From Caballeronia concitans (GTDB lineage Bacteria > Pseudomonadota > Gammaproteobacteria > Burkholderiales > Burkholderiaceae): a stretch of 64,000 nt of DNA. The notes under the pieces were generated by a model, which saw only the letters and a program-made list of their open reading frames with translations, did no database searches and was not told where the DNA came from. Below, in pieces: positions 44,047 through 63,376 of this stretch. The stretch lies in contig NZ_FCNV02000001.1 in assembly GCF_001544615.1 (NCBI RefSeq), positions 930,001 to 994,000 on the forward strand, given 5' to 3'. A program made the position numbers and the translations under genes. Numbering within the stretch: the stretch's first letter is position 1; every line of letters starts with the position of its first letter.

Positions 44047-44123
44047 TGGCGCGGCTGGCAGGATTCGAACCCACGACCCCTTGGTTCGTAGCCAAGTACT
44101 CTATCCAACTGAGCTACAGCCGC
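44047..44123 (-). tRNA. tRNA-Arg(ACG), copy 3 in transcription order
   Basis: A 77-base tRNA with encoded CCA, acceptor GCGGCTG/CAGCCGC, anticodon loop CTACGAA (anticodon ACG, wobble A likely to become inosine) and T-loop TTCGAAT. It is identical to the two copies at higher coordinates. Confidence 0.97.
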
Positions 44124-44210
44124 ACGCAAAACGGTACTGCTATGTTACTTCAATGCGCTTTTGGTTAAGCGCTCGATGCTTTCGCTTGAAAGTGAAAACA
44201 CCGGAATAAG

Positions 44211-44287
44211 TGGCGCGGCTGGCAGGATTCGAACCCACGACCCCTTGGTTCGTAGCCAAGTACTCTATCCAACTGAGCTACAGCCGC
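44211..44287 (-). tRNA. tRNA-Arg(ACG), copy 2
   Basis: Identical in all 77 bases to its neighbours. It is separated from each by the same 87-base spacer. Confidence 0.97.
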
Positions 44288-44374
44288 ACGCAAAACGGTA
44301 CTGCTATGTTACTTCAATGCGCTTTTGGTTAAGCGCTCGATGCTTTCGCTTGAAAGTGAAAACACCGGAATAAG

Positions 44375-44451
44375 TGGCGCGGCTGGCAGGATTCGAACCC
44401 ACGACCCCTTGGTTCGTAGCCAAGTACTCTATCCAACTGAGCTACAGCCGC
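44375..44451 (-). tRNA. tRNA-Arg(ACG), copy 1 (promoter-proximal)
   Basis: The same tRNA as copies 2 and 3. The upstream flank differs from the repeated spacer after a few bases and holds the array promoter. Confidence 0.97.
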
Positions 44452-55495: not shown

Positions 55496-55641
55496 AGCGG
55501 GCGGCGCAATCCTTCCGCGCTTGTTCCGCGCGACGGATCGCCTCATGATCGCCCGCTAGCCTTGATGGAACGGGCGTTCGCCGGCGATGAACCGGGCGCC
55601 TGACCATGCAGTACGGCCCGATTAGCGATATATTCGCGGTC

Positions 55642-56364
55642 ATGACAAAACCGTGTCCGCCCGATCCCACAGCCGTTCCGAAGCCCTCCACATGGGATGC
55701 GCGGCTCGCCCGCCGACTCGTCACTCCGCTCGTCGGCACCCCCGTCACGCCGAATCATTTGACGACATTGCGCCTGGCCATCGGCCTCGCGGGCGCTTAC
55801 TACCTTTCGCTCGGCGATTTCTGGCTTTGCACGCTCGGCGCGCTGCTGATCGCGCTGTCGAATTTCGTCGATCATACCGATGGCGAACTGGCGCGCATCA
55901 GCGGTCAGTCGAGTAAAATCGGGCATTTTTACGACCTCGCGTCCGATGCGCTCATCACCGTGCTGCTGTTTCTCGGCATCGGTTTTTATGTGGCGGCGCA
56001 TCATCCGTCCGTGGCGACGGCGGCGCAATGGCTCGGCGGCATCGCGGGCGTGGCGGTCGCGATCATTTTCTTCCTGCGCATGCGCATCGAGTCGATGGTC
56101 GGCAAGTCCGGCACGAAGCAGGCTTCGATGGGCGGTTTCGAAACCGAAGACGTGCTGTATCTGCTGCCCGTCGTCACGATTCTGAACGGCATGACGCCTT
56201 TTCTGATCGCCGCGTGCATCGGCGCGCCGCTGTTCGCAGTCTATGTCGCAGTGGATTATCGGCGAGTCGTGCGGCGCGTGCAGTCGGAAGCGGCGACGGG
56301 CGCGAACGTCACGACCAAAGCCACGCGCGGCAAGGACGGCAACGATTTTCAGGCGGTGAGATGA
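55642..56364 (+). CDS. CDP-alcohol phosphotransferase, phosphonate operon
   Basis: A 240-residue membrane enzyme that displaces CMP from a CDP-alcohol. The full motif D-G-x2-A-R-x8-G-x3-D-x3-D is intact (D80, G81, A84, R85, G94, D98, D102). Five to six hydrophobic helices are seen. The N-terminal WDARLARRLVTPLVGTPVTPN resembles inositol-phosphate-type members. By context the donor may be CMP-aminoethylphosphonate and the acceptor a membrane lipid or sugar; this is inference. The start is uncertain: ATG 55606 is the alternative and neither has a clear ribosome site. It heads the operon and overlaps the next gene by four bases. Confidence 0.88.
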   Translation: MTKPCPPDPTAVPKPSTWDARLARRLVTPLVGTPVTPNHLTTLRLAIGLAGAYYLSLGDFWLCTLGALLIALSNFVDHTDGELARISGQSSKIGHFYDLASDALITVLLFLGIGFYVAAHHPSVATAAQWLGGIAGVAVAIIFFLRMRIESMVGKSGTKQASMGGFETEDVLYLLPVVTILNGMTPFLIAACIGAPLFAVYVAVDYRRVVRRVQSEAATGANVTTKATRGKDGNDFQAVR

Positions 56365-57173
56365 GCGATACGGTAATCCCGGTCAACAATGTCCAATACG
56401 AGCGCAAATCGACGCAGGCCGGGCGTCCGACGCCAGGCGAAATCGACGCAACGCTTTCCGCCCGTCTCGCGGCGCTGCCTGCGCCGAAGCTGCATTCGGA
56501 CTACGAGAAACAGGGTTCCTTTCTTTATCTCGAAGATTTCCTGCCGCGCGAATACACCGAACGCCTGATCGCCGCCGTGCATGACGTGACGCCGGCCGTG
56601 AACCGCAACTATCTGCCGGGACACAAGGCGGGCGGCAGCGTGAGCCGCCATACGCTCGACAAGCTTGCGCCGTTCATCGCGGACCTGTACCGGTCCGAGG
56701 CGCTCATCAAGTGGCTCGAAGCGGTCAGCGGCGACAAGCTGCAACTGTCGCCGGAAGACGATCCGCACGCGTACGCGCTGTACTTCTATACGCGACCGGG
56801 CGACCACATCGGCTGGCACTACGACACGTCGTACTACAACGGCCGCCGCTACACGATGCTGCTCGGCGTCATCGATAATTCGTCCTGCCGGCTCGACTAC
56901 GAGCTGCACACGCGCACGCCGAACGCGACGCCCGAGCCGGGCTCGGTGCAGTATCCGCCGGGCGCGTTCGTGTTTTTCGACGGCGACAAGCTGCGTCACC
57001 GCGTGACGCCGCTCGGCGAGAACGAAATGCGCGTGTCGCTCACCTTCGAATACGTGACGAACCCGCACATGCGGCCGTTCCAGCGCTTCATTTCGAACAT
57101 GAAGGATTCGATCGCGTACTTCGGCTTCAAACAGGTCTTTCGCCGCAAAGGCGGCAAGAACGGACAGGCATGA
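56361..57173 (+). CDS. 2-oxoglutarate/Fe(II)-dependent oxygenase
   Basis: A 270-residue oxygenase with an intact facial triad: H153 and D155 in HIGWHYDTSYY, H213 in LRHRVTP and the 2OG-binding R224 in EMRVSLTFEY. The fold is of the prolyl-4-hydroxylase/2OG-FeII_Oxy type, different from the PhyH-like PhnY of AEP degradation. The first 45 residues are a probable flexible leader. Translational coupling by ATGA overlaps on both sides ties it to the phosphotransferase and flippase. Hydroxylation of AEP or of its lipid conjugate is plausible but untested. Confidence 0.85.
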   Translation: MSDTVIPVNNVQYERKSTQAGRPTPGEIDATLSARLAALPAPKLHSDYEKQGSFLYLEDFLPREYTERLIAAVHDVTPAVNRNYLPGHKAGGSVSRHTLDKLAPFIADLYRSEALIKWLEAVSGDKLQLSPEDDPHAYALYFYTRPGDHIGWHYDTSYYNGRRYTMLLGVIDNSSCRLDYELHTRTPNATPEPGSVQYPPGAFVFFDGDKLRHRVTPLGENEMRVSLTFEYVTNPHMRPFQRFISNMKDSIAYFGFKQVFRRKGGKNGQA

Positions 57174-58186
57174 GCCGCGCCGGAACATTCATGCTGTCGG
57201 TCGGCGTGGTGTTGTTCATCGCGCTGCTCGGCTGGCAGGGTTTCGGCTCCGTCGCCTCGACGCTGGCCGCTGCGGGCTGGGGGCTCGTCGCGGTCGCCGC
57301 GTTTCACTTCGCGCCGCTTCTGCTCGACGCCGGCGCAATCAGCGTGCTTTTTTCCCGCAGACAGCGCGACGTTTCCCTGCGCGATGCGCTGCTCGCGCGC
57401 TGGGCCGGCGAATCGGTCAACAGCCTGATGCCCGCGGGCCAGATCGGCGGGCCGATGCTGATGGTCCGCCATCTCTCGCAGCGCGGCATGCGCGCACGCG
57501 ACGCCGCCGCCGTCATCACCATCAGCACGACGATGCAGACCGTCGGGCAATTGATCTTCGCGCTCGTCGGCGTCGTGCTGCTCACCGATTACGCGGCGGG
57601 CGGATCGTCGGGAGCCGTGTCGATTGCGGTGCTCGCGGTCGTCGGCGTGATCGGCGCGCTGATCTTCGGCTTCTATCTCGCGCAGCGGCGCGGTCTCTTC
57701 GGCCGCTCCATGCGCTTTGTCTCCGGCATCGCCACGCGGTTCTCGAAGAAGCGCGACTGGTCGTCGCTCGTCTCGCGCGCCGAAGCCGTCGATGTCGCCG
57801 TCCACGATCTCTATCGCGAACGGCGCAAGGTCGCGGCGAGCTTCGGCTTGAGCCTTGTCGGCTGGATTGTCGGCACCGGGGAAGTGTGGCTCGCGCTTAG
57901 CGTGCTGGGCCATCCGGTCGGCTGGACCGAAGCGCTGCTGCTCGAAAGCCTCGGCCAGGCGATTCGCGGTGCGGCGTTCATGATTCCCGGCTCGCTCGGC
58001 GTGCAGGAGGGCGGCTACCTGCTGCTCGCGCGCCTCGTCGGCCTGCCGCCGGAAGCGGCGCTCGCGCTGTCGCTCGCCAAGCGCGCGCGCGAACTGCTGC
58101 TCGGCGTGCCGGGCATCGTCTATCTGCATTTCGTTGAGAAAGGCTGGCAGCGCCGCCGTCTTGCGCGCGTGCCGGAAATCGACTGA
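57170..58186 (+). CDS. LPG-synthase-TM / flippase-like membrane protein
   Basis: A 338-residue protein with about eight hydrophobic helices. The pattern LLARWAGESVNSLMPAGQIGGPMLMVRHL, then FMIPGSLGVQEGGYLLLARLVGLPPEAAL, is that of the UPF0104/HpnL-like flippase group related to the membrane part of MprF. No soluble aminoacyl domain is attached, so this is the translocase half. In this operon it could move the phosphonate conjugate across the membrane. The start overlaps the oxygenase stop. Confidence 0.85.
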   Translation: MSRAGTFMLSVGVVLFIALLGWQGFGSVASTLAAAGWGLVAVAAFHFAPLLLDAGAISVLFSRRQRDVSLRDALLARWAGESVNSLMPAGQIGGPMLMVRHLSQRGMRARDAAAVITISTTMQTVGQLIFALVGVVLLTDYAAGGSSGAVSIAVLAVVGVIGALIFGFYLAQRRGLFGRSMRFVSGIATRFSKKRDWSSLVSRAEAVDVAVHDLYRERRKVAASFGLSLVGWIVGTGEVWLALSVLGHPVGWTEALLLESLGQAIRGAAFMIPGSLGVQEGGYLLLARLVGLPPEAALALSLAKRARELLLGVPGIVYLHFVEKGWQRRRLARVPEID

Positions 58187-58209
58187 CTACCCTCGAAGGG
58201 AAAACAACC

Positions 58210-58998
58210 ATGCGCGCAATCATTCTTGCGGCCGGGATGGGTTTGCGTCTCGTTCAGCCCGAAGGCCAGCAGAAACCGAAGTGCCTGCTGCGCTTCGGAG
58301 ACACATCGGCGGGCTCGGCCGCCGATGCATCGCTCCTCGAACGCCATCTGCATTATCTGAAGACCGCGGGCGTCGATGAAATCGTCTTCGTGACGGGCTT
58401 CAAACACGAGCAGATCGAAGCGGAACTCGCGGCGATCGACTGGAAGCCGACGACCTCGACCGTCGTCAACGAAGAATTCACGCTCGGCAGCGTGCTGTCC
58501 GTGCACACCGCGCGCGAAGCGATGACGCGCGGCGGCGACGTGCTGCTGATGGACGCCGACGTGCTCTACGACGAGCGCATCATCGAACCGCTGGTGGCGG
58601 GCGGCTCCGTGAATCGCCTGCTGATCGACCGCGACTTCGAAGCCGGCGACGAGCCGGTGAAGCTGTGCATCGAAAACGGTGTGCCGGTCGAACTGCGCAA
58701 GCAGGTGGCGGCGGGACTGAAGTACGACACCATCGGCGAATCGGTCGGCTTCTTCCGTTTCGACGAAAAGACGGCTGCGCGTCTCGCCGATATCGTCGCG
58801 GATTACGTGAACACGGGCCGCGCGAAGATGCCGCACGAAGAAGCGGTGCGCGATCTTCTGCTGGAAAAGCGCCACGTGTTCGATATCGCCGATGTGACCG
58901 GCGCACCGTGGATCGAAATCGACTTTCCGAACGACGTGACGCGCGCCGCTGACGAAGTCTTGCCGCAACTGCGCCCGCTGCGTCAGTTCGCGGCGTAA
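58210..58998 (+). CDS. Nucleotidyltransferase, candidate CTP:AEP cytidylyltransferase
   Basis: A 262-residue NTP transferase. The nucleotide loop AAGMGLRL (residues 7-14) is intact and is followed by KPKCLLRF. The metal-binding LLMDADVLYD has D115 and D117, and the C-terminal EIDFPNDVTRA matches sugar-phosphate and choline-phosphate cytidylyltransferases (LicC/PntC-like). In phosphonate clusters such enzymes activate AEP as CMP-AEP. AAGGGA precedes the ATG. The substrate is inferred from neighbours. Confidence 0.85.
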   Translation: MRAIILAAGMGLRLVQPEGQQKPKCLLRFGDTSAGSAADASLLERHLHYLKTAGVDEIVFVTGFKHEQIEAELAAIDWKPTTSTVVNEEFTLGSVLSVHTAREAMTRGGDVLLMDADVLYDERIIEPLVAGGSVNRLLIDRDFEAGDEPVKLCIENGVPVELRKQVAAGLKYDTIGESVGFFRFDEKTAARLADIVADYVNTGRAKMPHEEAVRDLLLEKRHVFDIADVTGAPWIEIDFPNDVTRAADEVLPQLRPLRQFAA

Positions 58999-59020
58999 GA
59001 GATAAGAGGACAATTCGACA

Positions 59021-60718
59021 ATGAACGCACCCAGCAACATTCCGGTCGGCTATTCGCGCACGCTGCGCCTGCGCGAGATGCTGACGAGCAACCGCCTCGA
59101 ATTCCTGATGGAAGCGCACAACGGCATTTCCGCGCGCATCGCGAAGGAAGCGGGCTTCAAGGCGATCTGGGGCTCGGGCCTCTCGATTTCCGCGCAGTTC
59201 GGCGTGCGCGACAACAACGAGGCGAGCTGGACGCAGGTCGTCGACAACCTCGAATTCATGGCCGACGCGAGCGATCTGCCCATTCTGCTCGACGGCGACA
59301 CAGGCTACGGCAACTTCAACAACGTGCGCCGTCTCGTGAAGAAGCTGGAGCAGCGCGGCATCGCGGGCGTGTGCATCGAGGACAAGCAGTTCCCGAAGAC
59401 CAACAGCTTCATCAATGGCGAAGCACAGCCGCTCGCCGACATCGACGAATTCTGCGGCAAGATCAAGGCCGGCAAGGATTCGCAGAGCGATCCGAATTTC
59501 TCGATCGTCGCGCGCGTGGAAGCGCTGATCGCCGGCTGGGGCATGGAAGAGGCGCTCAAGCGCGCCGAAGCGTATCGCCAGGCGGGCGCGGACGCCATTC
59601 TCATTCACAGCAAGCTCTCGAAGCCCGACGAGATTCTGACGTTCGCCCGCGAATGGGCGGGGCGCGGTCCGCTCGTGATCGTGCCGACGAAGTACTACAG
59701 CACGCCGACCGACGTGTTCCGTCAGGCGGGCATCAGCACGGTGATCTGGGCGAACCATCTGATTCGCGGCGCGGTTTCGGCGATGCAGGCGATCGCGAAG
59801 GAAATCCACGACAGCGAGACGCTCGTCAACGTGGAAGACCGCATCGCGTCGGTGAACGAAATTTTCCGCCTGCAGGACGCCGACGAATATTCCGCCGCCG
59901 AGAATCTCTATCTGACCGCCGCGAACGAGAAGCGCGGCGCGGTCGTGCTGGCGGCGAGCCGCGGCGCGGGCCTCGAAGCGGTCACGGCGGATCGTCCGAA
60001 GGTGATGCTGCCGGTCGCGGGCAAGCCGCTTTTGCGCCATCTGGCCGAAGCGTTCAAGAAGGAAGGCATCAACGACATCACCGTCGTCGGCGGTTATCGC
60101 GCGGACGCGATCGATGCGTCGGGCATCCGCCTGGTCGTCAACGCGAAGCATGAAACGACGGGCGAACTCGCGTCGCTCGCGTGCGCGGCGAAGCACATCA
60201 CCGGCGATACTGTGATTTCCTACGGCGATCTGCTGTTCCGCAGCTATATCCTGCGCGATTTGGTGGAATCGGAAAGCGACTTCTGCGTCGTCGTGGATTC
60301 GTCGCAGACGCCGCAAGCGGGCGCATCCGCGACGGACTTCGCCTATTGCTCGACCGCCGACGATCGCGCGCTCTTCGGCCAGAAAGTGTGGCTGGAAAGC
60401 GTCGTCGGCGCGGGACAAAGCCTGACCGAAGGCCGCGCGCCGCAAGGCCGCTGGATGGGCCTCATCAACGTGCGCGGCGGCGCGCGCGAGCGTTTCATCG
60501 ACACGCTGACGCAGCTTCAGCAGCGCGCGGACTTCGACACGCTCGACATGGCCGCGCTGCTCAACGCGCTGATCGCGGCGGGGCAAAAAATCGAAGTGCA
60601 ATACGTGCACGGCCACTGGCGCGGCGTGAACGATCTCGACGACTTCCGGCGCGCGGGCGATTTCGCGCATGGTCAGACGCCTATCGGTTCGGAAGGCATG
60701 GAGAACGCGCGTGATTGA
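59021..60718 (+). CDS. aepX: PEP mutase fused to a degenerate nucleotidyltransferase domain
   Basis: A 565-residue protein. Residues 1 to about 290 are phosphoenolpyruvate mutase, which converts PEP to phosphonopyruvate, the entry to nearly all C-P bonds. The diagnostic [10 protein letters not shown] starts at E120. [14 protein letters not shown] and IPTK-like [11 protein letters not shown] agree with the isocitrate-lyase fold. Residues 303-560 are NTP-transferase-like, but the loop reads [18 protein letters not shown] instead of the usual AAGxGxRL. The two catalytic halves are continuous without a frameshift. GAGGA precedes the ATG. Confidence 0.93.
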
Positions 60719-61868
60719 AGCCGCCGAGTTCGTCGAAGCGGCGCGCGCGCGCGGCTTCGACTGGTATGCGGGCGTGCCGTGCTCGTTTCTCACGCCGTTC
60801 ATCAACTACGTGCTGCAGGACGAATCGCTGCATTACGTGTCGGCGGCGAATGAGGGCGATGCCGTCGCGTTGATCGCGGGCGTCGCGCTCGGAGGCGGGG
60901 CGAAGCGTCGCGGCATCGCGATGATGCAGAACTCCGGCCTCGGCAACGCAGTGAGTCCGCTGACGTCGCTCACGTGGACGTTTCGCCTGCCGCAGCTTTT
61001 GATCGTCACGTGGCGCGGGCAGCCGGGCGTCGCCGACGAGCCGCAGCACGCGCTGATGGGCCCCATCACGCCGCAGATGCTCGACACGATGGAAATTCCG
61101 TGGGAGCTGTTCCCGACGGAGAGCGATGCCATCGGCCCGGCGCTCGATCGCGCGACCGAGTACATGGATCGCACCGGCCGTCCGTATGCGCTCGTGATGC
61201 AGAAGGGCAGCGTCGCGCCGTATCAGCTCAAGAAGACCGGCTTGTCGGGCGTGCGCGTTGCCGCGCAACCGGCGGCGGTCGCGCGCTTCGAAGGCGAGCG
61301 CGTGTCGCGGCACGAAGCGCTCGAACGCGTGATCGCAGGAACGCCGAAGGATTCGACCGTCGTGCTCGCATCGACGGGCTTTTGCGGCCGCGAACTCTAC
61401 GCAATCGACGATCGCGAGAACCAGCTCTATCTCGTCGGCTCCATGGGCTGCGTCACGCCGATGGCGCTCGGTCTCGCGCTGTCGCGCCCGGACCTGACGG
61501 TCGTCGCGCTCGACGGCGACGGCGCCGCGCTCATGCGCATGGGCGCGTTTGCGACGCTCGGCGCATACGGTCCGTCGAACCTGCTGCATTTGTTGCTCGA
61601 CAACGGCGCGCACGAATCGACCGGCGGACAGGCGACCGTCTCGCGCGGCGTCGATTTCGCGTCGATCGCGTCGGCGTGCGGCTACGCGCTCGCGCTCGAT
61701 GGCGACGACATCGGCGTGATCGATCGCCTGTTCGAAGCGAAAGCGCCCGAAGGCGCGCGCTTCGCGCGGCTGTCGATCAATACCGGCACGCCCGCCGACC
61801 TGCCGCGCCCGAAGATCACGCCCGAGGACGTGCGCGCGCGCCTGCAACGACACATCGGAGAACGCTGA
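60711..61868 (+). CDS. aepY: Phosphonopyruvate decarboxylase
   Basis: A 385-residue TPP enzyme that pulls the unfavourable mutase reaction forward by making phosphonoacetaldehyde. The N-terminal pyrimidine-domain pattern [20 protein letters not shown] and [16 protein letters not shown] is that of the family; the TPP/Mg motif starts GDGAALM at residue 270 and ends in [16 protein letters not shown] 60711, inside the aepX end, has GGAG upstream. The longer reading to 60669 is unsupported. Confidence 0.94.
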
Positions 61869-62932
61869 TGCTGCTGCTCAATCCTGGCCCCGTCACGCTG
61901 ACCGAGCGCGTGCGCAACAGCCTTCTGCAAACGGACTTGTGCCATCGAGAGCCCGAGTTCTTCGATCTTCAGGATGAAGCGCGCAAACGTCTCGTCGCCG
62001 CTTACGAGCTGGATCCCGCCAAATGGACGGCGGTGCTGATGACCGGCTCCGGCACGGCGGCCGTCGAAAGCATGGTGGCGGGCATCGTGCCGGAAGGCGG
62101 GCGTCTGCTCGTCGTCGAGAACGGCGTGTACGGCGACCGTATCGCGCAGATCGCGAAACAGTACGGCATCGAGCATGAAGTCGTGAAGTACGAGTGGATG
62201 CAGGCGCCCGACATCGACGCGATCGTCGCCATGATCGACGCGAAGGCGTTCACGCATGTCGCGATCATCCATCACGAAACGACGACCGGCCGCCTGAACG
62301 CCATCGATGCGCTCTCGCGCGCGTGCGGCGAGCGCGGCGTGGGCTTGCTCGTCGATGGCGTCAGCAGCTTCGGCGCCGAAGCGATCGATTTCGACGGCGG
62401 CGGCATCGTCGCGGTCGCGGCGACGGCGAACAAGTGCCTGCACGGCGTGCCGGGCGCGGCGTTCGTGATCGTCCGGCGCGATGCGTTGACGAAGGCCGCG
62501 AGCCGCACGTATTACCTCGGCATCGCGCGGCTCGCGAAGCTGCAGGACGAGCGCAACACGCCGTTCACGCCGTCGGTGCATGCGTATTACGCGCTCGTCG
62601 AAGCGCTGCGCGAGTTCGAGGACGAAGGCGGCTGGCGCGCGCGCCACGCTCGCTATGCGGCGCTGGCCGAGCAGGTTCGCGCGGGGCTGGCTGCGCTGGG
62701 CATCGAGAGTGCGTTGCCGCCGGATGAATCGTCGGTGGTGTTGCGCGCGTATCGGCTGCCCGCGGGCGTCACGTACGAAACGCTGCACGACGCGCTGAAG
62801 GCCAAAGGCTTCGTGATCTATGCCGGGCAGGGCGGTTTGTCGAAGAGCCTGTTCCGCATCTCGACGATGGGCGCACTCGACGCAAGCGACATGGACCGGC
62901 TGATCGCATCGGTCGCCGAACTGGTGCGCTGA
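61868..62932 (+). CDS. phnW: 2-Aminoethylphosphonate transaminase
   Basis: A 354-residue PLP aminotransferase that interconverts phosphonoacetaldehyde and AEP. The N-terminus LLLNPGPVTLTERVRNSLL and the TGSGTAAVESMV site are typical. The PLP Lys is K189 in TANKCLHGVPG. The C-terminal FRISTMGALDASDMDRL fits. The ATG overlaps the aepY stop by one base. Next to mutase and decarboxylase it must run towards AEP (biosynthesis); no phnX phosphonatase is present. Confidence 0.94.
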   Translation: MLLLNPGPVTLTERVRNSLLQTDLCHREPEFFDLQDEARKRLVAAYELDPAKWTAVLMTGSGTAAVESMVAGIVPEGGRLLVVENGVYGDRIAQIAKQYGIEHEVVKYEWMQAPDIDAIVAMIDAKAFTHVAIIHHETTTGRLNAIDALSRACGERGVGLLVDGVSSFGAEAIDFDGGGIVAVAATANKCLHGVPGAAFVIVRRDALTKAASRTYYLGIARLAKLQDERNTPFTPSVHAYYALVEALREFEDEGGWRARHARYAALAEQVRAGLAALGIESALPPDESSVVLRAYRLPAGVTYETLHDALKAKGFVIYAGQGGLSKSLFRISTMGALDASDMDRLIASVAELVR

Positions 62933-63376
62933 TCAGGGCTTGCAGAAGATCGCGGTGACGAAGGGCGCGACGTGGTGCACCACCGCGTCGCTGCCCGCCG
63001 CGCGCACCCGCTGTTCCACTTCGTCGTCCCCGCCCCACACGACGGCGCCGTACGCCGCATCGCCGATCGGTTCGCCCTTGCCTTGCCTGAAGAGCGGATC
63101 GTCTTTCTGATACGCCACGAGCGCGTACACCTTGAAGCCATAAGCCGTCAGCGTCGATCCCTTCGTCGGCCTGAACGCATTGACCGAATTCGGTTCGACG
63201 CGCATCGGTTTCTTTTCGAGCAAGCCGTCGTCCTGCAATGGCGCGATGAAGTCGTGCGGCGTGGACTTGCAATCGAGTTGCGATTCGAGCGCCTTGGTGC
63301 CGGCGTGCGCGAACGTAGCCCACGCGGTCAGCGCGAACGGCAAGGCGAGGCGGATGATTGGGCGGGCGAGCGTCAT
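62933..63376 (-). CDS. Exported hypothetical protein
   Basis: A 147-residue protein with a signal peptide (LALPFALTAWATFAHA). The mature part has two Cys (QLDCKSTPHDFI and the end AIFCKP), probably a disulfide, and the strand-rich segment TAYGFKVYALVAY. No family is recognised. It is convergent with phnW with no gap, and no link to phosphonate metabolism is evident. Confidence 0.7.
   Translation of the reverse strand: MTLARPIIRLALPFALTAWATFAHAGTKALESQLDCKSTPHDFIAPLQDDGLLEKKPMRVEPNSVNAFRPTKGSTLTAYGFKVYALVAYQKDDPLFRQGKGEPIGDAAYGAVVWGGDDEVEQRVRAAGSDAVVHHVAPFVTAIFCKP

What the first reader, a model, noticed from the sequence alone, without database searches (positions are those of the whole stretch)
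55642..62932. Seven-gene operon that appears to make, activate and export a phosphonate conjugate
PEP mutase, phosphonopyruvate decarboxylase and AEP transaminase are joined by overlapping starts to two nucleotidyltransferase domains, a CDP-alcohol phosphotransferase with a complete motif, a 2OG/Fe(II) oxygenase and a flippase-like protein. Spacing is -4, -4, +23, +22, -8 and -1 bases. Known families predict PEP to phosphonopyruvate to phosphonoacetaldehyde to AEP to CMP-AEP, then transfer to an alcohol. The inferred product is a phosphonolipid or phosphonate-modified membrane glycan, possibly hydroxylated. I do not know a characterised system with exactly this gene set.
Basis: partly seen in the sequence, partly recalled or inferred. 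Interest (0 to 1): 0.85.

Follow-up and report, generated by a model that had tools for sequence, protein, structure and literature searches.

The report
Phosphonate membrane-lipid operon linked to hopanoids
Seven adjacent genes in a Caballeronia-like bacterium look like a complete route for making a carbon-phosphorus head group and putting it on a membrane lipid, and in some related bacteria the same genes sit beside those for hopanoids (bacterial sterol-like lipids), which suggests a possible new kind of hopanoid lipid.

Summary
In detail: seven genes, their order, spacings and families are as stated. The gene set is not new in print: PMC5987646 (Fig. 7 legend) names the same families in lichen Nostoc, with a Burkholderia homologue, as a predicted phosphonolipid cluster. 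No product is characterised in any source I saw.

New here: (1) In 249 family genomes, 140 hold the CDP-alcohol transferase, oxygenase and PEP mutase together, 6 some, 103 none. In genus g44 the operon is split into a synthesis and an attachment module that are mostly co-retained. (2) The stand-alone nucleotidyltransferase carries the catalytic residues of the AEP cytidylyltransferase PntC; the domain fused to PEP mutase lacks the catalytic arginine in 105 of 105 sequences. (3) The flippase-like protein is HpnL (TIGR03476), a hopanoid-associated family. In 34 of 146 cluster-bearing genomes, from 5 of 11 genera, hopanoid genes lie beside the operon, on either side; on a Roseomonas plasmid it adjoins hopanoid genes too.

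My reading: (hydroxy)AEP is transferred to a membrane alcohol, most likely an extended hopanoid. The acceptor is inferred, without chemistry, and the loci are unlinked in the window's own genome.

The parts
55642..56364 (+). CDP-alcohol phosphotransferase (CAP), 240 aa (or 252 aa from 55606); predicted to transfer the (hydroxy)AEP-phosphonyl group from CMP to a lipid alcohol
56361..57173 (+). 2OG/Fe(II) oxygenase, predicted hydroxylase of AEP
57170..58186 (+). HpnL-family membrane protein (LPG_synthase_TM fold), predicted flippase for the head-group-bearing lipid
   Evidence: TIGR03476 HpnL 341.3 bits, cut-off 195.65; PF03706 116 bits; a paralogue in the same genome lies 0.7 kb after HpnI-HpnJ
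58210..58998 (+). Stand-alone PntC-like cytidylyltransferase, predicted AEP or hydroxy-AEP activator
   Evidence: PF12804; best PDB match Tde-PntC 6pd1, E 7.4e-6, aligned over 2-254; equivalents of catalytic R15/K25/K153 kept in 73/71/73 of 73
59021..60718 (+). PEP mutase fused to a nucleotidyltransferase-like domain
   Evidence: TIGR02320 403.5 bits; E, D, K, N and S of EDKxxxxxNS in 105 of 105
59930..60718 (+). C-terminal nucleotidyltransferase-like domain of the PEP mutase, catalytic Arg missing; role unknown (regulatory or altered). Start of the domain is approximate
   Evidence: PF12804 52.2 bits from residue 307; LAASRGxGL in place of LAAGxGxRL, position of the Arg is G in 103 and N in 2 of 105, while PK and GD of YGD are kept in 105 of 105
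60711..61868 (+). Phosphonopyruvate decarboxylase (GTG start)
   Evidence: TIGR03297 443.3 bits, cut-off 312.5
61868..62932 (+). 2-aminoethylphosphonate aminotransferase
   Evidence: TIGR03301 393.1 bits, cut-off 360.8; candidate PLP Lys189 in 92 of 92 (its assignment is recalled)

Best explanation
The operon makes and exports a phosphonate-headed membrane lipid, most likely a hopanoid. PEP mutase, decarboxylase and transaminase make 2-aminoethylphosphonate (AEP). The BesD/hydroxylase-like 2OG oxygenase probably hydroxylates free AEP. The stand-alone PntC-like enzyme charges it as CMP-(hydroxy)AEP. The CDP-alcohol phosphotransferase moves the phosphonyl group onto a hydroxyl of an extended hopanoid such as bacteriohopanetetrol, and the HpnL protein flips the product. 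Shown here: the families, catalytic residues, operon, co-retention, and synteny with hopanoid genes in relatives. Inferred: every reaction, the order of hydroxylation and activation, the acceptor, and the flipping.
For: Families and motifs. Unit: 140 of 249 family genomes hold all three markers, 6 some, 103 none; in genus g44 the PEP mutase lies away from the oxygenase in all 22 genomes that have both, and 22 of 26 genomes with the oxygenase have it. Hopanoid acceptor: the transporter is HpnL, and the genome's other strong HpnL lies 0.7 kb after HpnI-HpnJ, genes of a hopanoid head group. The operon lies beside or within about 16 kb of hopanoid genes in 34 of 146 cluster genomes: g34 25 of 26, g40 3 of 3, g32 2 of 4, g31 1 of 1, g39 3 of 3. 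On the AEPT side: AEPT-dxs-HpnN-HpnM-like-ispH-HpnH-HpnA-HpnB-HpnG-SHC in g32, g34 and g40 (for G111), without dxs in G090 and in g31. On the CAP side in g39: an HpnM-like gene about 0.2 kb upstream of CAP and HpnN beyond it. Named examples: Mycetohabitans rhizoxinica HKI 454 plasmid and a Roseomonas marmotae plasmid (Alphaproteobacteria), where CAP follows hpnH and ispH in another order and the flippase is again HpnL. 145 of 146 cluster genomes have HpnH and 145 of 146 have SHC.
Against: No chemistry. In the window's own genome the operon (C18) is not linked to SHC/HpnH (C22) or HpnI-HpnJ (C12), and in 6 of 11 cluster-bearing genera no hopanoid gene was seen beside the loci examined (113 of 121 loci had no hopanoid hit, with flanks of at most 10 kb). 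HpnH/SHC co-occurrence is confounded: 29 genomes have HpnH without the cluster, small genomes tend to lack both, and Fisher values ignore phylogeny. The linked genera fall in an unresolved part of the PEP mutase tree, so few origins are possible, and the two AEPT-side forms may be one. PEP mutase loci outside the family showed no hopanoid island. HpnM-like genes score below their cut-off. The nearest CAP structures are of enzymes that, as I recall, use inositol phosphates or CDP-DAG. I recall no phosphonate hopanoid from published hopanoid analyses of Burkholderia.
Confidence: 0.48

Rival explanations
1. Glycerophosphonolipid: CAP transfers (hydroxy)AEP from CMP to diacylglycerol, a Kennedy-type route, giving a C-P analogue of phosphatidylethanolamine; HpnL flips it and the hopanoid neighbourhood only reflects shared membrane physiology.
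Against: Does not explain why the flippase is HpnL rather than another LPG_synthase_TM family, why hopanoid genes are adjacent on either side in five genera and again in Roseomonas, or why all but one of 146 cluster genomes have HpnH, though the last is confounded.
Confidence: 0.3
2. A phosphonoglycan or other surface polymer: CMP-AEP is used to decorate a glycan, as proposed for Pnt pathways of oral anaerobes and Bacteroides.
For: PntC enzymes were characterised in such pathways (PMC6697681).
Against: No glycosyltransferase or LicD-like transferase among the seven genes; the transferase is a CDP-alcohol phosphotransferase and the transporter an HpnL.
Confidence: 0.1
3. The attachment module (CAP-oxygenase-HpnL-PntC) is not specific for AEP made in the cell: its cytidylyltransferase acts on phosphoethanolamine, phosphocholine or scavenged AEP, and the PEP mutase module is only one source.
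For: G123, G268 and G287 keep the attachment module, all four genes matched along most of their length, without any PEP mutase above the family cut-off; the PntC-like pocket has Asp where Tde-PntC has Glu104, as in LicC (PMC6697681 read).
Against: PEP mutase, CAP and oxygenase occur together in 140 of the 146 genomes that have any of the three.
Confidence: 0.09

Closest known systems
Predicted phosphonolipid cluster of lichen Nostoc with its Burkholderia homologue (PMC5987646 Fig. 7; passages and legend read, figure and supplement not seen)
   Same: Same families named: CDP-alcohol phosphatidyltransferase, OG-Fe(II), NTPT, pepM, ppd, AEPT, hpnL; hydroxy-AEP among the abbreviations
   Different: Prediction only; the legend also lists unknown proteins and higBA; gene order and sequences not compared; the main text has no occurrence of hopan or squalene
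Roseomonas SHC-PEP mutase hybrid clusters (PMC8776678; passages read)
   Same: PEP mutase genes linked to squalene-hopene cyclase; authors suggest an undiscovered terpene-phosphonate
   Different: Acetobacteraceae only; on the one Roseomonas plasmid examined here no 2OG oxygenase was found and gene order differs; no transfer enzyme is named in the passages seen
Pnt (phosphonyl tailoring) pathways, PntC of Treponema denticola and Atopobium rimae (PMC6697681; parts 1-4 of 8 read)
   Same: PEP mutase-fused NTase plus separate PntC in some clusters, Ppd, AEPT; CMP-AEP logic
   Different: There the later transfer step is unknown, with LicD-like or glycosyltransferase genes nearby; here a CDP-alcohol phosphotransferase, an oxygenase and HpnL are present
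Archaeal IPCT-DIPPS (4mnd) and AF2299
   Different: Domains fused there (for AF2299 recalled); inositol substrates; 18-20% identity in the structural alignments
BesD/HalD halogenases and the lysine hydroxylases beside them
   Same: Closest solved relatives of the oxygenase by sequence profile and fold
   Different: Here Asp of HxD is kept, so hydroxylase-type, and the genetic context is phosphonate

Membership tests
Pnt (phosphonyl tailoring) pathway | PEP mutase with EDKxxxxxNS | tested here: met
   window and 105 of 105 orthologues; TIGR02320 403.5 bits
Pnt (phosphonyl tailoring) pathway | Ppd and AEPT making AEP | tested here: met
   TIGR03297 and TIGR03301 over cut-off; family level only, activity not tested
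Pnt (phosphonyl tailoring) pathway | PntC with GXG(T/S)RX4-8PK and the catalytic Arg/Lys/Lys | tested here: inconclusive
   Arg13, Lys24, Lys164 align with R15, K25, K153 of Tde-PntC and are kept in 73/71/73 of 73, but the window has Leu at the T/S position and a spacer of 9
Pnt (phosphonyl tailoring) pathway | formation of CMP-AEP | not testable with these tools
   needs enzyme assay
CDP-alcohol phosphotransferases (PF01066) | DxxDGxxARx8GxxxDxxxD motif and six-helix fold | tested here: met
HpnL (TIGR03476) | score above the curated cut-off | tested here: met
   341.3 against 195.65 bits
Hopanoid (hpn) gene island | physical linkage to shc/hpnH/hpnN in the window's own genome | tested here: not met
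   operon on C18; SHC and HpnH on C22; HpnI-HpnJ-HpnL on C12; no hopanoid hit in 19 kb around the operon
Hopanoid (hpn) gene island | physical linkage in relatives | tested here: met
   34 of 146 cluster genomes, 5 of 11 genera; named:
BesD/HalD amino-acid halogenases | Asp of HxD replaced by a small residue (recalled) | tested here: not met
   HYD in the window and in 67 of 69 orthologues, 2 gapped: hydroxylase-type
Predicted Nostoc/Burkholderia phosphonolipid cluster | same seven families in one cluster | tested here: met
   families compared with the Fig. 7 legend; sequences and order of that cluster not compared

The most novel reading that the evidence does not exclude
The operon makes phosphonohopanoids: (hydroxy)aminoethylphosphonate esters of bacteriohopanetetrol, a lipid class not found reported in my searches, with HpnL-family proteins as flippases for head-group-modified hopanoids.
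Probability: 0.45. Interest if true: 0.85.

Novelty: new variant of a known kind. Interest (0 to 1): 0.62.

Why it matters
Phosphonate lipids and glycans are predicted in many bacteria, but PMC6697681 calls the steps after AEP unknown or enigmatic. This operon names a candidate transferase, oxygenase and flippase in organisms that can be cultured. If the acceptor is a hopanoid, it would be a new class of hopanoid with a C-P bonded zwitterionic head group, would give HpnL, whose function PMC12583986 calls not established, a testable role, and would add a C-P bearing candidate to the hopanoids used as biomarkers.

Tried and rejected
Novel gene set: rejected, since the same families are in a published figure legend. 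Glycan acceptor: kept only as a low rival, no glycosyltransferase or LicD among the genes. Halogenase: HalD/BesD relatives, but HxD is kept. A promoter or RNA element: one weak sigma-70-like match, on the other strand near 63.4 kb, against 1.1 expected; 12 terminator-like sites against 7.2 expected; no Rfam match at gathering score. The PEP mutase tree as a count of independent hopanoid linkages: inconclusive, 4 changes with open forks (39 rows chosen from the loci, partial genes left out). PEP mutase in a phylum sample: 15 of 398 genomes at E 1e-80, 5 of them family members; in the 12 loci fetched from the other 10 genomes I saw only HpnJ-like (23-29%) and one HpnL-like (28%) hit and no hopanoid island, some contigs being short, so linkage is not general to PEP mutases. 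A chemical report of a phosphonate hopanoid: none found in the listings (open-licence papers, 20 listed per search at most); subscription papers could not be searched.

Not followed: whether G027, G010, G032 and similar AEPT-less genomes have a true PhnW (only L195, L197, L199, L203 were tested); whether the Nostoc cluster is near hopanoid genes (no access to those genomes); HpnK in the window's genome.
Full report
Observation. The first gene may start at 55606 or 55642. Family models confirm every assignment: CDP-alcohol phosphotransferase (CAP); a 2OG/Fe(II) oxygenase nearest to HalD; a protein of the LPG_synthase_TM fold that scores 341 bits against the hopanoid-associated family HpnL (TIGR03476, cut-off 196); a MobA-like nucleotidyltransferase; PEP mutase fused to a second such domain; phosphonopyruvate decarboxylase; and AEP aminotransferase. 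The genome is Caballeronia-like: the PEP mutase fusion is 91-94% identical to the first 17 named loci (L039-L055, named Caballeronia, Burkholderia or Candidatus Paraburkholderia, best 80 of 453 relatives kept). The window is G000:C18:930001-994000.

Is it a unit? Of 36 named loci from Caballeronia and close relatives (L039-L074), 26 match all seven genes (three of them, L055, L058 and L059, with a partial HpnL or oxygenase match), 9 lack a local AEPT, and one is cut by its contig end. Across 249 genomes of the family the oxygenase is found in 145 (E 1e-8), the PEP mutase fusion in 141 (1e-120) and CAP in 145 (1e-25). Comparing the lists, 140 hold all three, 6 hold some (G036, G123, G268, G287, G198, G259) and 103 hold none. 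In the 40 regions fetched, gene order is kept wherever the genes are present, apart from the split in g44. In genus g44 the oxygenase and the PEP mutase lie on different contigs or far apart in all 22 genomes that have both, and in the regions fetched CAP-oxygenase-HpnL-PntC form one group and PEP mutase-Ppd-AEPT another (in G142 ppd is in two pieces and no AEPT follows). 22 of 26 g44 genomes with an oxygenase hit have the PEP mutase fusion, and no listed g44 genome showed the reverse. Of 43 named loci around PEP mutase from Paraburkholderia and relatives (L075-L118 without the B. dolosa locus L107, which has all seven genes), none has CAP, oxygenase or HpnL nearby, though 5 have under 4 kb upstream; 4 (L094, L096, L100, L113) have the PntC-like gene beside PEP mutase. 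G123, G268 and G287 keep the attachment module without a PEP mutase above the family cut-off.

Two nucleotidyltransferase domains, two fates. The stand-alone enzyme's best solved relative is Tde-PntC, the characterised AEP cytidylyltransferase (6pd1). Residues aligned with its catalytic R15, K25 and K153 are kept in 73, 71 and 73 of 73 orthologues; Ala at each of these left under 10% activity in Tde-PntC (PMC6697681, read). At the amine-binding Glu104 it has Asp in 73 of 73, as LicC does, so the pocket may take a larger substrate such as hydroxy-AEP (inference). The domain fused to PEP mutase has LAASRGxGL where the NTP loop should be: the catalytic Arg position is Gly in 103 and Asn in 2 of 105, although PK and GD of YGD are kept in 105 of 105. 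On the Roseomonas plasmid the fused domain is also altered, beginning LAASAGD. It is conserved but unlikely to be an ordinary transferase; a sensor or scaffold role is possible. These counts come from 120 loci; matches covering under 75% of a query were dropped, and some species occur both as named and unnamed records, so rows are not independent.

The hopanoid link. HpnL is described as hopanoid-associated with function not established; in a survey of Alphaproteobacteria it was absent from the genomes without hpnH, and from 13 of 48 with it (PMC12583986, passages). The window's genome has a second HpnL over the cut-off, 0.7 kb after HpnI and HpnJ. A plasmid search led to Roseomonas marmotae, where CAP, AEPT, an HpnL (259.6 bits), Ppd, PEP mutase and a PntC-like gene sit beside hpnC, hpnD, hpnE, shc, a hopanoid-associated phosphorylase, hpnH and ispH, with one small hypothetical gene between ispH and CAP. 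In Burkholderiaceae, G111 of genus g40 has the operon followed by dxs, HpnN, an HpnM-like gene (72 bits, cut-off 160), ispH, HpnH, HpnA, HpnB, HpnG, SHC and HpnD. A like island is annotated in Mycetohabitans rhizoxinica HKI 454, CAP to hpnD within about 23 kb. Counted over the family sample: genus g34 25 of 26 genomes linked (19 by HpnH coordinates, 9-14 kb from PEP mutase; 2 by SHC; 4 by regions fetched and read; the remaining one, G202, is in 1120 contigs); g40 3 of 3; g32 2 of 4 (the other two contigs end inside dxs); g31 1 of 1, with HpnN and an HpnM-like gene after AEPT; g39 3 of 3, with an HpnM-like gene about 0.2 kb upstream of CAP (same strand shown for L166 and L167) and HpnN beyond it. 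That is 34 of 146 genomes and 5 of 11 genera. G090 of g34 lacks dxs between AEPT and HpnN, so the g31 form may be the same arrangement. In the remaining genera, the window's included, no hopanoid gene was seen beside the loci examined (113 of 121 loci without a hit, flanks of at most 10 kb). A Cupriavidus plasmid likewise has the cluster without hopanoid genes in about 40 kb.

Co-occurrence. Of 146 genomes with any of the three cluster genes, 145 have HpnH (the exception, G259, has a broken cluster) and 145 have SHC (the exception is G210). 29 genomes have HpnH and 31 have SHC without the cluster. Fisher tests are extreme (6e-38 and 2e-36) but ignore phylogeny and genome size, so nesting alone is weak evidence. 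The adjacency on either side of the operon and the HpnL family membership carry the argument. The PEP mutase tree does not resolve how many times linkage arose.

Literature. The gene families are already named together, with a Burkholderia homologue, as a predicted phosphonolipid cluster (PMC5987646, passages); that main text has no occurrence of hopan or squalene. PMC8776678 (passages) noted PEP mutase linked to hopene cyclase in some Roseomonas and suggested an undiscovered terpene-phosphonate. PMC6697681 (parts 1-4 of 8) gives the PntC biochemistry and notes clusters with both a fused and a separate nucleotidyltransferase. PMC8154272 (passages) cites hydroxy-AEP in Bdellovibrio stolpii phospholipids. 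PMC12871164 (outline and abstract) describes a different Burkholderia phosphonate. Yu et al. 2013 was not held. I found no report of a phosphonate hopanoid in the listings.

Verdict. The new content is the modular split with co-retention, the altered fused domain, and a reasoned case that the acceptor is a hopanoid. I give the generic reading (AEP-headed membrane lipid through CMP-AEP) about 0.75 to 0.8, and the hopanoid acceptor about 0.45 to 0.5; no step has been shown biochemically here.

Noticed in passing
window 44047-44451 (-): Three tRNA-Arg(acg) genes in tandem, starting 164 bp apart.
   Followed up: no
L056, L061, L063, L067, L069-L073 (Caballeronia; L072 is named Burkholderia sp.): No AEPT match in these loci, and ppd seems to be the last gene. 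In the two AEPT-less genomes tested, G034 and G002, a PhnW-type AEP:pyruvate transaminase (about 500 bits to NF010006) lies elsewhere and may substitute.
   Followed up: partly
L159, L160, L161 (G123, G268, G287): CAP-oxygenase-HpnL-PntC matched along most of each gene, without any PEP mutase above the family cut-off: possible AEP scavengers.
   Followed up: partly
L163, L164, L185, L186, L187 (small genomes of 2.8-4.2 Mb in the same genus): Copies of the operon with genes missing or matched in separate pieces, so the pathway seems dispensable in reduced genomes.
   Followed up: partly
window 59930-60718: The nucleotidyltransferase-like domain fused to PEP mutase is conserved but lacks the catalytic Arg in 105 of 105 sequences; it may be a sensor or scaffold.
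   Followed up: yes
L213 5116-9654 (own genome C12): HpnI-HpnJ with a second HpnL paralogue 0.7 kb on, 28% identical to the operon's HpnL: suggests one HpnL per hopanoid head-group pathway.
   Followed up: partly
window 62933-63376 (-): Convergent 147-aa ORF whose stop abuts that of AEPT, with no Pfam or NCBIfam match at E 0.001.
   Followed up: no
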